Assembly (NCBI RefSeq): GCF_011440375.1
Contig: NZ_JAAOIR010000002.1
Span: 744,001-808,000 of the forward strand
Direction of reading: 5' to 3'
Source: Halorubellus sp. JP-L1
GTDB lineage: Archaea; Halobacteriota; Halobacteria; Halobacteriales; Natrialbaceae
Length of the DNA stretch: 64,000 nucleotides
The position numbers and the translations under genes were made by a program. This document shows, one piece after another, positions 33,243 to 56,111 of this stretch. Under the pieces are notes generated by a model. The model saw nothing but the letters and a program-made list of their open reading frames with translations. It had not been told where the DNA came from and did no database searches. How positions within the stretch are numbered: position 1 is the first letter of the stretch; every line of letters starts with the position of its first letter.

Positions 33243-34205
33243 ATGACAGACGCACGAACACGAACCAGAACGAGAGTCGCGAGCACGGAAGAGGAATCGG
33301 AGAAGGGCGAGCAGGTCACCTGCCCGGAGTGCAACGGTGACGTCGTCACAGAGGGTCAGGAGACGGTCTGCAACATGTGCGGACTCGTCGTCGACACCGA
33401 CGAGGTCGACCGCGGCCCCGAGTGGCGCGCGTTCGACGCCCAGGAGAAGAACGAGAAGTCCCGCGTCGGCGCGCCCACGACGAACACGATGCACGACAAG
33501 GGGCTGTCGACGAACATCGACTGGCGGGACAAGGACGCCTACGGCAACTCGCTGGACTCCCGCCAGCGCGAGAAGATGCAGCGCCTCCGCAAGTGGAACG
33601 AGCGCTTCCGCACGCGCGACAGCAAGGAACGCAACCTCAAGCAGGCGCTCGGCGAGATCGACCGCATGGCGAGCGCGGTCGGCCTCCCGGACAACGTCCG
33701 CGAGACCGCCAGCGTCATCTACCGGCGCGCGCTCGACGAGGACCTCCTCCCGGGTCGCAGCATCGAGGGCGTCGCGACCTCCGCGGTGTACGCCGCCGCG
33801 CGCCAGGCCGGCGTCCCGCGCAGCCTCGACGAGATCGGCGACGTCTCGCGCGTCGAGAAGAACGAGGTCGCGCGCACGTACCGTTACGTCGTCCGCGAAC
33901 TCGGCCTCCAGGTCGCGCCCGCGGACCCCGAGAGCTACGTGCCGCGGTTCGCGAGCGGTCTCGAACTCAGCGACGAGGCCGAGCACCGCGCGCGCTCGCT
34001 CCTCAAGACCGCCAAGGAGAAGGGCGTTCACTCCGGGAAGTCGCCGGTCGGCCTCGCCGCCGCCGCCGTCTACGCCGCGAGCCTCCTGACCAACGAGAAG
34101 ACGACGCAGGCCGCCGTATCCGACGTCGCCGACATCTCCGAGGTCACCATCCGGAACCGCTACCACGAGCTCCTCGAAGCCGAGGACACGCTCGGACTCG
34201 CCTGA
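33243..34205 (+). CDS. tfb: Transcription initiation factor TFB
   Basis: Archaeal TFIIB homologue that bridges TBP-TATA-BRE and RNA polymerase, 320 aa. The zinc ribbon CPECNGDVVTEGQETVCNMC (about 25-45) is followed by the B-reader/linker region (GPEWRAFDAQEKNEKSRVGAP) and two cyclin-like core repeats (about 115-205 and 215-310). ATG 33243 is the first start whose N-terminus looks right. Haloarchaea usually have several TFB paralogues; which one this is cannot be read here. Its promoter carries a palindrome over the BRE, and hairpin repeats follow the stop within a few bases. Confidence 0.93.
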   Translation: MTDARTRTRTRVASTEEESEKGEQVTCPECNGDVVTEGQETVCNMCGLVVDTDEVDRGPEWRAFDAQEKNEKSRVGAPTTNTMHDKGLSTNIDWRDKDAYGNSLDSRQREKMQRLRKWNERFRTRDSKERNLKQALGEIDRMASAVGLPDNVRETASVIYRRALDEDLLPGRSIEGVATSAVYAAARQAGVPRSLDEIGDVSRVEKNEVARTYRYVVRELGLQVAPADPESYVPRFASGLELSDEAEHRARSLLKTAKEKGVHSGKSPVGLAAAAVYAASLLTNEKTTQAAVSDVADISEVTIRNRYHELLEAEDTLGLA

Positions 34206-34310
34206 CTGCACGAGCGTAAACCGGCTGCACGAGCGTACGGCGGCCGTCAGGCCGCCGTTTCGAGCTGATTGACCGCACGAGCATCCGGCGGCTGGCAGGC
34301 CGCCGTTTTC
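34206..34310 (+). repeat. Covarying hairpin repeats after tfb (two full copies)
   Basis: Copy 1: ACGGCGGCC (34237-34245), loop GTCA, GGCCGCCGT (34250-34258), followed by TTC. Copy 2, 48 bp on: CCGGCGGCT (34285-34293), loop GGCA, GGCCGCCGT (34298-34306), followed by TTTC. Each is preceded by a GCACGAGC segment, and that left flank occurs one more time at 34206-34218. The T-run after the stem gives a terminator-like look downstream of tfb. Confidence 0.85.
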
Positions 34311-38090: not shown

Positions 38091-38236
38091 TGGAAACGGC
38101 GGCCTGGCGGCCGCCGTATGCTCGTGCGGGCAGTAGGCCGCCGTATGCTGGTGGAGTCAGGGAGGAGCGGAAACGGCGTCCTGGCGGACGCCGTATGCTG
38201 GTGCGGGCAGTAGGCCGCCGTATGCTCGCGGAGTCA
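38091..38236 (-). repeat. 77-bp tandem unit with covarying hairpins
   Basis: Two 77-bp units. Unit 1 has stem ACGGCGGCC (38096-38104)/GGCCGCCGT (38109-38117); unit 2 has ACGGCGTCC (38173-38181)/GGACGCCGT (38186-38194), loop TGGC in both. Each unit also has a right-half-only copy (GGCCGCCGTATGC at about 38136 and 38213) and ends with GAGTCAG, which in unit 2 contains the stop codon of the minus-strand gene. A degenerate half copy lies at 38051-38074. Confidence 0.9.
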
Positions 38237-39289
38237 GTCGTCGATTCGCTCGACGCCGTCGACCTCGAGCACGAGGTCCTTCCCGTACGCGGTCGACGGC
38301 GTCTGGTAGCCGGTGGGGGCGTCGCCGTCGAGGACGCGACGCACGCACAGCAGGGCGGTGTCGCGAGTGAGCGCGTACGCGTTCGGGGTCTCGAGGTGCG
38401 AGACGACGCGCTCGCCGGCTGCGTTCTCGGCTTCGCCGTAGATCTCGCCGCTACCCTCGCGGAGTTGCTCGTCGTCCGGGCCGTCGATTCGGCGGTCGAC
38501 GAGCCACTTCAGGAGCGACTGCACCGGCCCCGTCTGCACGAGCGGTGCGAGCTTGCGGAACGTCCGGAGGCGAGAGATCGTGTCCGGGTGCGTCTCCGAG
38601 TACACGCGGACGTTCCCCACGCCCGTCGAGTGGTAGGCCGTCACCACGTCCCCCCAGGGGATCGTCATCGCGCTCCGGGTGCCGTGCGAGAACTCGAACT
38701 CGCGGTCGTCGAACGCCTGCGGGACGCGCTTCAACTCGCCGTTCTCGCGGACGACGCCGTCGTCGCCGAACCCCTCGACCATCGTCATCGCCGTCCCCCG
38801 CGACAGGCCGCCCATCCCGCCGAGCGCGAGCGTGATCGACTCGGCGTCCGGCAGCCGGTCGACGAGGTGCGCCGCCAGGCAGTCCGACGGCACCACGTCG
38901 AATCCCGTCCCCGGCAGGAGCATGACGCCCGCGTCCGCGGCTTCCTCGCTCCGTTGCGCGAGCGCGTCGAAGACCTGCCACTCGCCCGTGATGTCGAGGT
39001 AGTGCGTGCCCGTCTCGATGCACGCGTCCACCATCGGCTCTGCCGTCCGCGAGAACGGGCCCGCGCAGTTCAGGACCACGTCGAAGTCCCCGATCTCGCT
39101 CGCGACGTCGTCGCCGCCCGAAAGCGAGAACACCGCGCCCTCCAGCCCCAATCGGCTCGCCTGCGACCGAACCTTCTCGGCGTTCCGACCGGCCACGGTC
39201 GGGTCGAGGTCGCTCGACGCCGCCGCCTGCTTCGCTATCAACTCGCCCGTGTACCCGTAAGATCCGTAGATGAGGACGTCGTCGGCCAT
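38234..39289 (-). CDS. Saccharopine dehydrogenase-like NAD(P)-binding oxidoreductase
   Basis: Rossmann-fold oxidoreductase of the saccharopine-dehydrogenase/trans-acting enoyl reductase group, 351 aa. The N-terminal LIYGSYGYTGELIAK is the dinucleotide-binding loop (an atypical GxYGYTG form), followed by VLNCAGPFSRTAEPMVDACI and YLDITGEW, characteristic of the group. Substrate is unknown; relatives act on lipid or polyketide chains. The C-terminus ends in LEVDGVERIDD. The stop codon is part of a tandem hairpin-bearing repeat. The gene lies downstream of, and co-directional with, the M32 carboxypeptidase gene. Confidence 0.85.
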   Translation of the reverse strand: MADDVLIYGSYGYTGELIAKQAAASSDLDPTVAGRNAEKVRSQASRLGLEGAVFSLSGGDDVASEIGDFDVVLNCAGPFSRTAEPMVDACIETGTHYLDITGEWQVFDALAQRSEEAADAGVMLLPGTGFDVVPSDCLAAHLVDRLPDAESITLALGGMGGLSRGTAMTMVEGFGDDGVVRENGELKRVPQAFDDREFEFSHGTRSAMTIPWGDVVTAYHSTGVGNVRVYSETHPDTISRLRTFRKLAPLVQTGPVQSLLKWLVDRRIDGPDDEQLREGSGEIYGEAENAAGERVVSHLETPNAYALTRDTALLCVRRVLDGDAPTGYQTPSTAYGKDLVLEVDGVERIDD

Positions 39290-40921: not shown

Positions 40922-41021
40922 CGCGCAATACTTTCCGCTACCTGCTCATGAAAGCATGGATTCTCACCGGCCCACCGCTCGACGATCTCGCCAGCGCCAC
41001 CCGCGACACCACTGCAACTCC

Positions 41022-41050
41022 AGAAACGGCGTCCTGGCGGACGCCGTATG
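41022..41050 (-). repeat. Single copy of the covarying hairpin repeat
   Basis: ACGGCGTCC (41026-41034), loop TGGC, GGACGCCGT (41039-41047), identical to unit 2 at 38173. It lies between divergent genes; the ATG at 41048 inside its right flank is a false start for the next gene. Confidence 0.85.
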
Positions 41051-41107
41051 CTACAGGAGGCAGTTTCGACCCGATGGTTTATGAACCACTCCGGCGAGGT
41101 TCCCGGT

Positions 41108-42004
41108 ATGCTCTCGCCGTACGCGAGCTTCGAGCTCCTGACGGTCGTCGTCGCGGGTCTCTGTGGCGTGCACGCGTACCGGACTCGCGACCTGCCGTTC
41201 TTCGGAACGGCCGTCGTCTACGGGGTCGTGCTGGAGAAGCTCGTCGTCCTCGGGTTCGAGGACTACACGTACCCGGCCGCGCGGTTCGTCGACGTCGCCG
41301 GCATTCCGCTCGCGATCGGGCTCGGGTGGAGCGTCGTCCTGTACGCGGGCTACGAGACCGCGCGCCGCTGGGAGATCGACCCGCCTGCTCGCGCGGCGTT
41401 CGTCGCGCTGTTCGTGCTGCACGTCGACCTCGCGCTCGACGCCGTCGCCATCCGCGTCCAGCCCGTCGGGTTCTGGACGTGGACGCCCGCCGGCGAGTAC
41501 TTCGGCGTGCCGCTCGGGAACTTCTTCGGGTGGTTCGCGGTCGGCTTCCTGTTCGTCGCCGTCTACGACGTCGCGCTCGGTCGCGCAGCGACCGCGGCGT
41601 GGTCCGACGGGGTGGACGAGGTCAGGGCCCGAGCAGTGGCTGCCGCGGTGACGCTCGTCGCCGCGTCCGCGCTCCTCTACGTCGCGATGTTCGCGTGGGA
41701 CGTCGTGACGCTCGAGTCGACGCTCCGGAAGGCGATCGTCCTCGGGTCCTGCATGGTCGCCGCTGGTATCGCCGTCGCGCGCTCGAACGCGTCGCTCCGC
41801 CAGCCCGCGACGCTCCCGTCGCTCGCGGTGTTCCTCACGCACGGCTACTTCCTCGCCGCGCTCCTCTGGCTCGGCGTCCACCGCACGGAGCCGTTCCTCC
41901 TCGCGATGAGTCTCGCGATGCTCGGCGTCGCCGCCGCCCTCCACGTCGCCCCCGTCGTCCTCGCCCGCGGGCGCTCGCCGGAGGCGACGCCCGAGACGCC
42001 CTGA
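41108..42004 (+). CDS. CruF-like carotenoid-biosynthesis membrane protein (DUF422 type)
   Basis: Integral membrane protein of 298 aa with about eight hydrophobic segments. The central block GVPLGNFFGWF, with nearby AGYETARRW and YTYP, resembles the CruF/DUF422 family, which hydrates the terminal double bonds of C50 carotenoids (bacterioruberin) in haloarchaea. Divergence is large enough that this could be a paralogue with another role, and no other carotenoid gene is near. I chose ATG 41108 because GTTTATG (about 41078-41084) sits about 27 nt before it as a TATA box; the longer frame would start inside the hairpin repeat. Confidence 0.65.
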   Translation: MLSPYASFELLTVVVAGLCGVHAYRTRDLPFFGTAVVYGVVLEKLVVLGFEDYTYPAARFVDVAGIPLAIGLGWSVVLYAGYETARRWEIDPPARAAFVALFVLHVDLALDAVAIRVQPVGFWTWTPAGEYFGVPLGNFFGWFAVGFLFVAVYDVALGRAATAAWSDGVDEVRARAVAAAVTLVAASALLYVAMFAWDVVTLESTLRKAIVLGSCMVAAGIAVARSNASLRQPATLPSLAVFLTHGYFLAALLWLGVHRTEPFLLAMSLAMLGVAAALHVAPVVLARGRSPEATPETP

Positions 42005-55930: not shown

Positions 55931-55975
55931 TGACGTAATCGAACAGGACCGGCCGTATAAATCTGCCGTGGACCG

Positions 55976-56111
55976 ACTGCACGAGCATACGGCGACCGCG
56001 AGGTCGCCGTTTCTGTGGTGGCTGTGCTGTGCGGTGTTTTGGTGTGGAGGGGATTGACTGCACGAGCATACGGCGACCGCCAGGTCGCCGTTTCTGTGGT
56101 GGCTGTTTTGG
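55976..56111 (+). repeat. 81-bp tandem unit with covarying hairpins
   Basis: Two copies of the left flank GACTGCACGAGCAT and of the stem ACGGCGACC/GGTCGCCGT (55989-55997/56002-56010 and 56070-56078/56083-56091), loops GCGA and GCCA, followed by TTTCTGTGGTGGCTGT. The stem differs from the other loci at one pair (A-T instead of G-C), matched on both arms. Confidence 0.9.

What the first reader, a model, noticed from the sequence alone, without database searches (positions are those of the whole stretch)
38091..38236. Intergenic hairpin family with compensatory stem changes
Seen directly: seven full copies of a 9-bp stem with 4-nt loop lie in four intergenic regions (34237, 34285, 38096, 38173, 41026, 55989, 56070), with conserved flanks (GCACGAGCAT on one side, TTTC on the other). 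The stem is ACGGCGGCC, ACGGCGTCC or ACGGCGACC, and the opposite arm always changes to match (GGCC, GGAC, GGTC). Within the 77-bp tandem pair here, the two copies differ at one stem base pair and both arms changed. Selection for pairing, in RNA or as DNA cruciform, is the simplest explanation. I know no named haloarchaeal element of this description.
Basis: partly seen in the sequence, partly recalled or inferred. Interest (0 to 1): 0.75.

Follow-up and report, generated by a model that had tools for sequence, protein, structure and literature searches.

The report
Repeated hairpin marking haloarchaeal gene ends
A 45-letter hairpin sequence is repeated about ninety times in the chromosome of this salt-loving archaeon, nearly always pressed against the stop codon of a gene or the back of a promoter, and its two stem arms change together, so it is probably a functional boundary or RNA-end signal rather than debris.

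Summary
The unit is 45 nt: ACTGnCT, about 5 free bases, AGCRT, a 9-bp stem, a 4-nt loop, then TTTC. The own genome holds about 92 full copies in 45 arrays, and Halorubellus salinus about 95 in 55. One pattern scan of 84,980 species hit only H. salinus. Stems covary: 98% of cells are paired, 5 of 9 pairs change on both sides, and 14 of 25 comparable orthologous site pairs differ by compensatory changes. At 45 of 61 collinear sites the sister species also has an element, although other intergenic DNA is unalignable. Array edges are polar: the ACTGnCT side abuts the stop codon of the preceding gene (64 of 100 arrays) or, in the other 36, mostly lies about 40 nt upstream of an oppositely oriented start codon. 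The other edge is loose, and the DNA beyond it is G+T rich. The own genome has no RAYT-type transposase. A related hairpin occurs in terminator-like composites in other haloarchaeal families. Best reading: a lineage-amplified, structure-selected extragenic hairpin acting, probably as RNA, at exits of transcription units. Function is inferred, not shown; REP-like selfish repeats and DNA-level boundary sites remain rivals.

The parts
34219..34263 (+). full element copy 1 (stem ACGGCGGCC, loop GTCA), after the TFB gene stop
   Evidence: CM R1 61.9 bits
34267..34311 (+). full element copy 2 (stem CCGGCGGCT, imperfect)
   Evidence: CM R1 50.9 bits; pair 1 C-T mismatch seen in sequence
34202..34218 (+). 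truncated 5'-half copy that overlaps the TGA stop (34203-34205) of the TFIIB-family gene
38168..38212 (-). full element copy (stem ACGGCGTCC)
   Evidence: CM R1 66.0 bits
38091..38135 (-). full element copy (stem ACGGCGGCC); best-scoring copy of the genome with R1
   Evidence: CM R1 66.9 bits
38213..38239 (-). truncated 5'-half copy that contains the TGA stop (38236-38234) of the minus-strand gene 38234-39289; breaks off at the end of the 5' stem arm
38136..38162 (-). truncated 5'-half copy between the two full copies
41021..41065 (-). full element copy (stem ACGGCGTCC); its 5' edge lies 42 nt from the start codon of the plus-strand gene at 41108
   Evidence: CM R1 59.0 bits; gene context
55971..56015 (+). 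full element copy (stem ACGGCGACC); its 5' edge lies 40 nt from the GTG start (55930) of the minus-strand DUF373 gene
   Evidence: CM R1 63.9 bits; ORF list
56052..56096 (+). full element copy (stem ACGGCGACC)
   Evidence: CM R1 65.9 bits
33240..34205 (+). TFIIB-family gene whose stop codon abuts the first array (start codon not determined)
   Evidence: PF00382, PF08271
38234..39289 (-). saccharopine-dehydrogenase-like gene followed by the second array
   Evidence: PF03435

Best explanation
The element is a chromosomal, lineage-amplified extragenic hairpin of Halorubellus that is kept for its structure. It sits where transcription leaves a functional unit: directly behind a stop codon, or directly behind a promoter facing away from it. 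It most likely works in the transcript read from the ACTGnCT side. The stem-loop forms 4-21 nt after the stop codon, followed by TTTC and a G/U-rich tail, and favours pausing, release or 3'-end processing, or protects the 3' end. In the promoter-back position it would do the same for upstream antisense transcripts. Shown: copy number, structure conservation, polar placement, retention at orthologous sites, a related hairpin in terminator-like composites. Inferred: that it is transcribed, and the termination or 3'-end role.
For: Covariation with 98% of cells paired and compensatory changes at 14 of 25 comparable orthologous site pairs. Element also present at 24/31 and 21/30 collinear sister sites while the rest of the intergenic DNA is unalignable. 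Hairpin starts 4-21 nt after the stop in 61 of the 64 stop-type arrays. Convergent regions make up 34% of arrays but 9-13% of control intergenics; divergent 17% against 29-38%. G/T-rich tail on the element strand in all four contexts, 85% of right flanks positive. Among imperfect pairs 35 are G.T and 6 A.C, which fits RNA of this strand. In other haloarchaeal families a related AGCAT hairpin with TTTC is followed by a second hairpin and TTTTT tracts. The H. volcanii 3'-end study reports hairpins upstream of 503 termini, one tested with 59% termination in vivo (PMC7237163).
Against: No expression data were available. 36 of 100 arrays follow no gene, and 17 are in divergent regions, where a role in RNA needs upstream antisense transcription. 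TTTC is a weak T tract, and T4 runs are about as rare near elements as elsewhere. The G.T excess may partly reflect the G/T mutational skew of the region. The tandem growth and the single-genus spread look like a repeat family with its own dynamics.
Confidence: 0.42

Rival explanations
1. A REP-like selfish repeat without a cellular role: the hairpin is the recognition or replication structure of a mobile short repeat that spread in the ancestor of Halorubellus and grows in place by tandem duplication.
For: High copy number in one genus only; head-to-tail arrays with near-identical neighbours (mean 5.3 differences, against 15.6 between arrays); truncated copies ending at the stem arm; REPs of bacteria look similar (PMC3733652).
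Against: No Y1/RAYT transposase in the own genome; contigs C3 and C4 of the own genome (0.71 Mb together) carry at most one weak hit against about 17 expected; orthologous copies resemble each other more than permuted ones (11.9 against 14.6 differences, none of 5000 permutations as low), so most sites are old; stem pairing kept where other intergenic DNA has been scrambled.
Confidence: 0.27
2. A DNA-level boundary or binding site: an invariant AGCRT + CG..C..CC hairpin recognised by a protein as duplex or cruciform, insulating promoters and gene ends (supercoil sink, nucleoid or roadblock site).
For: Found regardless of gene orientation, including divergent regions and promoter backs; several stem positions and AGCRT hardly vary, as expected for sequence-specific recognition; edges 29-44 nt from the start codon in 21 of the 36 promoter-type arrays.
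Against: A strand-symmetric DNA role does not predict G.T (35) over A.C (6) mismatches, nor the one-sided G/T-rich tail; a duplex protein site alone would not need compensatory changes in the variable pairs.
Confidence: 0.21
3. The covariation is mechanical: replication templating on the hairpin copies one arm onto the other, so pairs change together without selection.
For: Short loop and GC-rich stem; truncated copies that end exactly at the stem arm suggest template switching at the hairpin.
Against: Does not explain retention at 45 of 61 collinear sites, the conserved AGCRT outside the stem, the placement, or the same hairpin core in other families.
Confidence: 0.07

Closest known systems
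REP / BIME elements of bacteria (GTAG- and CGTC-tagged palindromic repeats)
   Same: Short extragenic palindromes with a tag on one side, many copies, arrays; CGTC REPs also lack a dedicated transposase (PMC3733652).
   Different: Tag is ACTGnCT...AGCRT, not GTAG or CGTC; arrays are head-to-tail; edge abuts stop codon or promoter exactly; archaeal; no RAYT in the own genome.
Haloarchaeal transposase-free repeats of Haloquadratum (MITE, PATE, SMR)
   Same: Short non-coding repeats without their own transposase in a haloarchaeon (PMC3119063).
   Different: Those described are 80 bp or longer, or carry IS605-like near-terminal palindromes or terminal inverted repeats, and are counted as mobile; here one 9-bp hairpin per 45-nt unit and no sign of recent transposition.
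Haloarchaeal / archaeal transcription terminators (T stretch, hairpin before 3' end)
   Same: Hairpin behind the stop codon followed by a short T run; relatives in other families are followed by TTTTT tracts; Haloferax hairpins precede some 3' ends (PMC7237163).
   Different: Sequence-conserved stem and 5' tag, tandem copies, T run only three bases, also behind promoters with no gene reading in.

Membership tests
REP (repetitive extragenic palindrome) | short palindromic repeat, high copy number, extragenic | tested here: met
   about 92 copies in 45 arrays in the own genome; 98 of 100 arrays (both genomes) not inside a called gene
REP (repetitive extragenic palindrome) | GTAG or CGTC tetranucleotide at one end | tested here: not met
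   consensus flanks are ACTGnCT..AGCRT and TTTC
REP (repetitive extragenic palindrome) | RAYT-type tyrosine transposase in the genome | tested here: not met
   no PF01797 match in the own genome; one in the sister species
REP (repetitive extragenic palindrome) | head-to-head / tail-to-tail pairs (REPIN, BIME) | tested here: not met
   full-length copies lying within 250 nt of each other are all on one strand in the coordinate lists
IS200/IS605-derived PATE | near-terminal palindromes related to an IS605-type element | not tested
   no comparison with IS605 ends was made
Archaeal T-stretch terminator | run of T at the 3' end site | tested here: inconclusive
   TTTC after the hairpin; T4 in 14/64 stop-type regions against 24/220 and 52/304 controls
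Archaeal T-stretch terminator | transcript 3' ends map to it | not testable with these tools
   no RNA data for Halorubellus
Rfam RNA family | match above gathering score | tested here: not met
   no match in the whole window
CRISPR repeat array | identical repeats with unique spacers of even length | tested here: not met
   units are near-contiguous (linkers mostly 0-8 nt, the rest up to 67 nt) with 1-5 full copies

The most novel reading that the evidence does not exclude
A previously undescribed class of archaeal boundary element: a structure-selected hairpin that marks the outgoing edge of transcription units, gene ends and promoter backs alike, derived from the first hairpin of a widespread haloarchaeal terminator-like composite and amplified into tandem arrays in one lineage. 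If so, this lineage marks the back of promoters to stop upstream antisense transcription.
Probability: 0.27. Interest if true: 0.78.

Novelty: new variant of a known kind. Interest (0 to 1): 0.57.

Why it matters
Archaeal 3'-end formation and the limits of transcription units in GC-rich haloarchaea, where T tracts are scarce, are poorly understood. A hairpin family present at about fifty sites (about a hundred copies) per genome, with exact placement at stop codons and promoter backs, natural compensatory variants and natural empty sites in a sister species, gives a ready-made test set. It also offers an archaeal counterpart to REP elements without a transposase in the own genome.

Tried and rejected
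RAYT/Y1 transposase as mobiliser: absent from the own genome. Outer second stem between the locus-specific bases and the right flank, suggested by single folds: not supported for the sense strand (first copies p 0.44, last copies p 0.20). On the antisense strand the observed pairing was slightly stronger than permuted (p 0.07 and 0 of 100); not pursued. Replacement of T-tract terminators by the element: T4 runs about equally rare with and without it. Rfam on the window: nothing; on relatives: only tRNAs and weak unrelated matches. Naming the relative families by plasmid BLAST: no match. Papers on haloarchaeal palindromic repeats: no described element of this kind.

Full report
Observation. Six of seven match the exact stem-loop pattern; the 34285 copy has one mismatch and one wobble. 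The 77-bp pair at 38092/38169 is real. The reversed-pattern control has no hit in the genome.

Anatomy. Aligning 44 copies from the first 30 loci gave a fixed 45-nt unit. It reads ACTGnCT, four to five free bases, AGCRT, a 9-bp stem with consensus ACGGCGnCC/GGnCGCCGT, a 4-nt loop (mostly GCCA) and TTTC. A covariance model of 36 sequences (R1) finds 92 full-length copies at E<0.004 in the own genome and 95 at E<0.002 in the sister genome G006. An exact-pattern scan of genome-contig hit only H. salinus GX3; records very near the own genome may have been left out of that scan. Among 59 genomes of 28 other genera of the same family there were only one or two borderline hits per genome.

Structure. 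In the first alignment 97.2% of stem cells pair (shuffled 89.1%) and four pairs change on both sides. With 140 distinct copies it is 98.2% against 84.8%, five pairs change on both sides, and there are 135 double-changed cells against 32.7 (that alignment is fitted to the model). Partners slid by one to three columns pair in 19-64% of cells. Pairs 2 and 5 never vary and pairs 3, 8 and 9 hardly do, so the sequence is constrained as well as the pairing. Among imperfect pairs 35 are G.T and 6 A.C. This is what selection on RNA of this strand predicts. However, the region right of the arrays is G/T rich, so a mutational bias towards G and T may explain part of it.

Placement. I grouped 187 copies into 100 arrays (45 in the own genome, 55 in the sister) and called genes by codon usage with a simple script of my own. 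The ACTGnCT edge faces a same-strand stop codon in 64 arrays, and in 61 of these the hairpin starts 4-21 nt after the stop. The element often supplies the stop itself (TAACTGACTGA holds stops in three frames). In the other 36 arrays the edge faces the start codon of an oppositely oriented gene; 21 lie 29-44 nt from it, some just outside a visible TATA-like box. The opposite edge is loose. Convergent regions are over-represented (34 of 100 arrays; 60 of 657 control regions of 100 nt or more, 118 of 927 of 60 nt or more) and divergent ones under-represented (17 of 100; 247 of 657 and 268 of 927). I have no mechanism that explains why one edge is exact and the other is not.

Right flank. The intergenic DNA right of the arrays is G/T rich on the element strand (A 0.105, C 0.267, G 0.398, T 0.231) in all four gene contexts, while control intergenics show no such bias. 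85% of 75 flanks have the same sign.

Evolution. For 61 array-to-sister comparisons with both flanks collinear, 45 have an element in the sister at the same place (the two directions partly count the same sites). In the 16 pairs printed, where the sister lacks a model hit, the intergenic DNA is mostly unalignable, and a few hold degenerate copies. Twenty-six arrays have left-flank orthologues. Their first copies differ at 11.9 positions on average against 14.6 when partners are permuted (0 of 5000 as low). One of the 26 pairs is misframed by two bases; in the other 25, 14 show at least one compensatory stem change. Adjacent copies in an array differ by 5.3 positions on average. Truncated copies that keep the 5' half occur in and beside arrays, in the window breaking at the end of the stem arm. 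So the sites are mostly old and arrays grow by local duplication. Contigs C3 and C4 of the own genome (about 0.71 Mb) carry at most one weak hit; that they are plasmids is inference.

Relatives. A second model from 150 copies (R2) finds matches at E<=1e-4 in 34 genomes outside the genus among 293 of the order, mostly of one other family (f4) and some of three or four more, with only 21 candidates scored per genome. In the loci read, the AGCAT hairpin with TTTC is followed by a second, freely varying hairpin, TTTTT tracts, a third hairpin and AAAAAG before a gene or tRNA. A model of this composite (R3) finds 11-32 matches per genome in eight such genomes, from some of which its training sequences came, and four in the own genome; three of these four lack AGCAT and one is an element array. 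These composites look like bidirectional terminators. That Halorubellus amplified the first hairpin of such a composite is inference from the shared core.

Mobility. The own genome has no Y1 transposase, which removes the RAYT model in its usual form.

Mechanism. I favour an RNA-level signal at the exit of transcription units (0.42). A selfish REP-like repeat (0.27) and a DNA-level boundary site (0.21) are serious rivals. No RNA data exist here, so the functional step is not shown.

Known systems. It resembles REP elements but lacks their tags, their paired orientation and, in the own genome, their transposase (PMC3733652). It differs from the MITEs, PATEs and SMRs of Haloquadratum (PMC3119063). 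The H. volcanii 3'-end study supports hairpins as terminators in haloarchaea in general (PMC7237163).

Noticed in passing
L164-L193 (other haloarchaeal families); own genome L202, L213, L223: A composite of three hairpins with T tracts in both directions between genes or tRNAs, 11-32 matches per genome in eight genomes of two other families and three non-array matches in the own genome; looks like a bidirectional terminator family with no Rfam match in the loci scanned.
   Followed up: partly
intergenic DNA right of the arrays, e.g. window 56016-56051: Strong G+T richness on the element strand irrespective of gene orientation; cause unknown (transcription-linked mutation or a functional G/U-rich tail).
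   Followed up: partly
G000 contigs C3 and C4; G006 contig C7: These large contigs have almost no element copies, although the rest of each genome has many.
   Followed up: no
L165, L172, L176, L182, L189, L193, upstream of the AGCAT hairpin: A second conserved intergenic motif, around CGGGGAAGGGCAGGC, precedes the composite in several genomes.
   Followed up: no
L202, L206, L213, L223, left of the composite: G/T-rich tandem repeats such as GCGGTTGCTGTGGCGGT on the strand that reads into the composite.
   Followed up: no
G006:C6:748470-748808 (L163): A single IS200-like Y1 transposase gene in the sister species, about 0.9 kb from an element copy at 749674; absent from the own genome.
   Followed up: no
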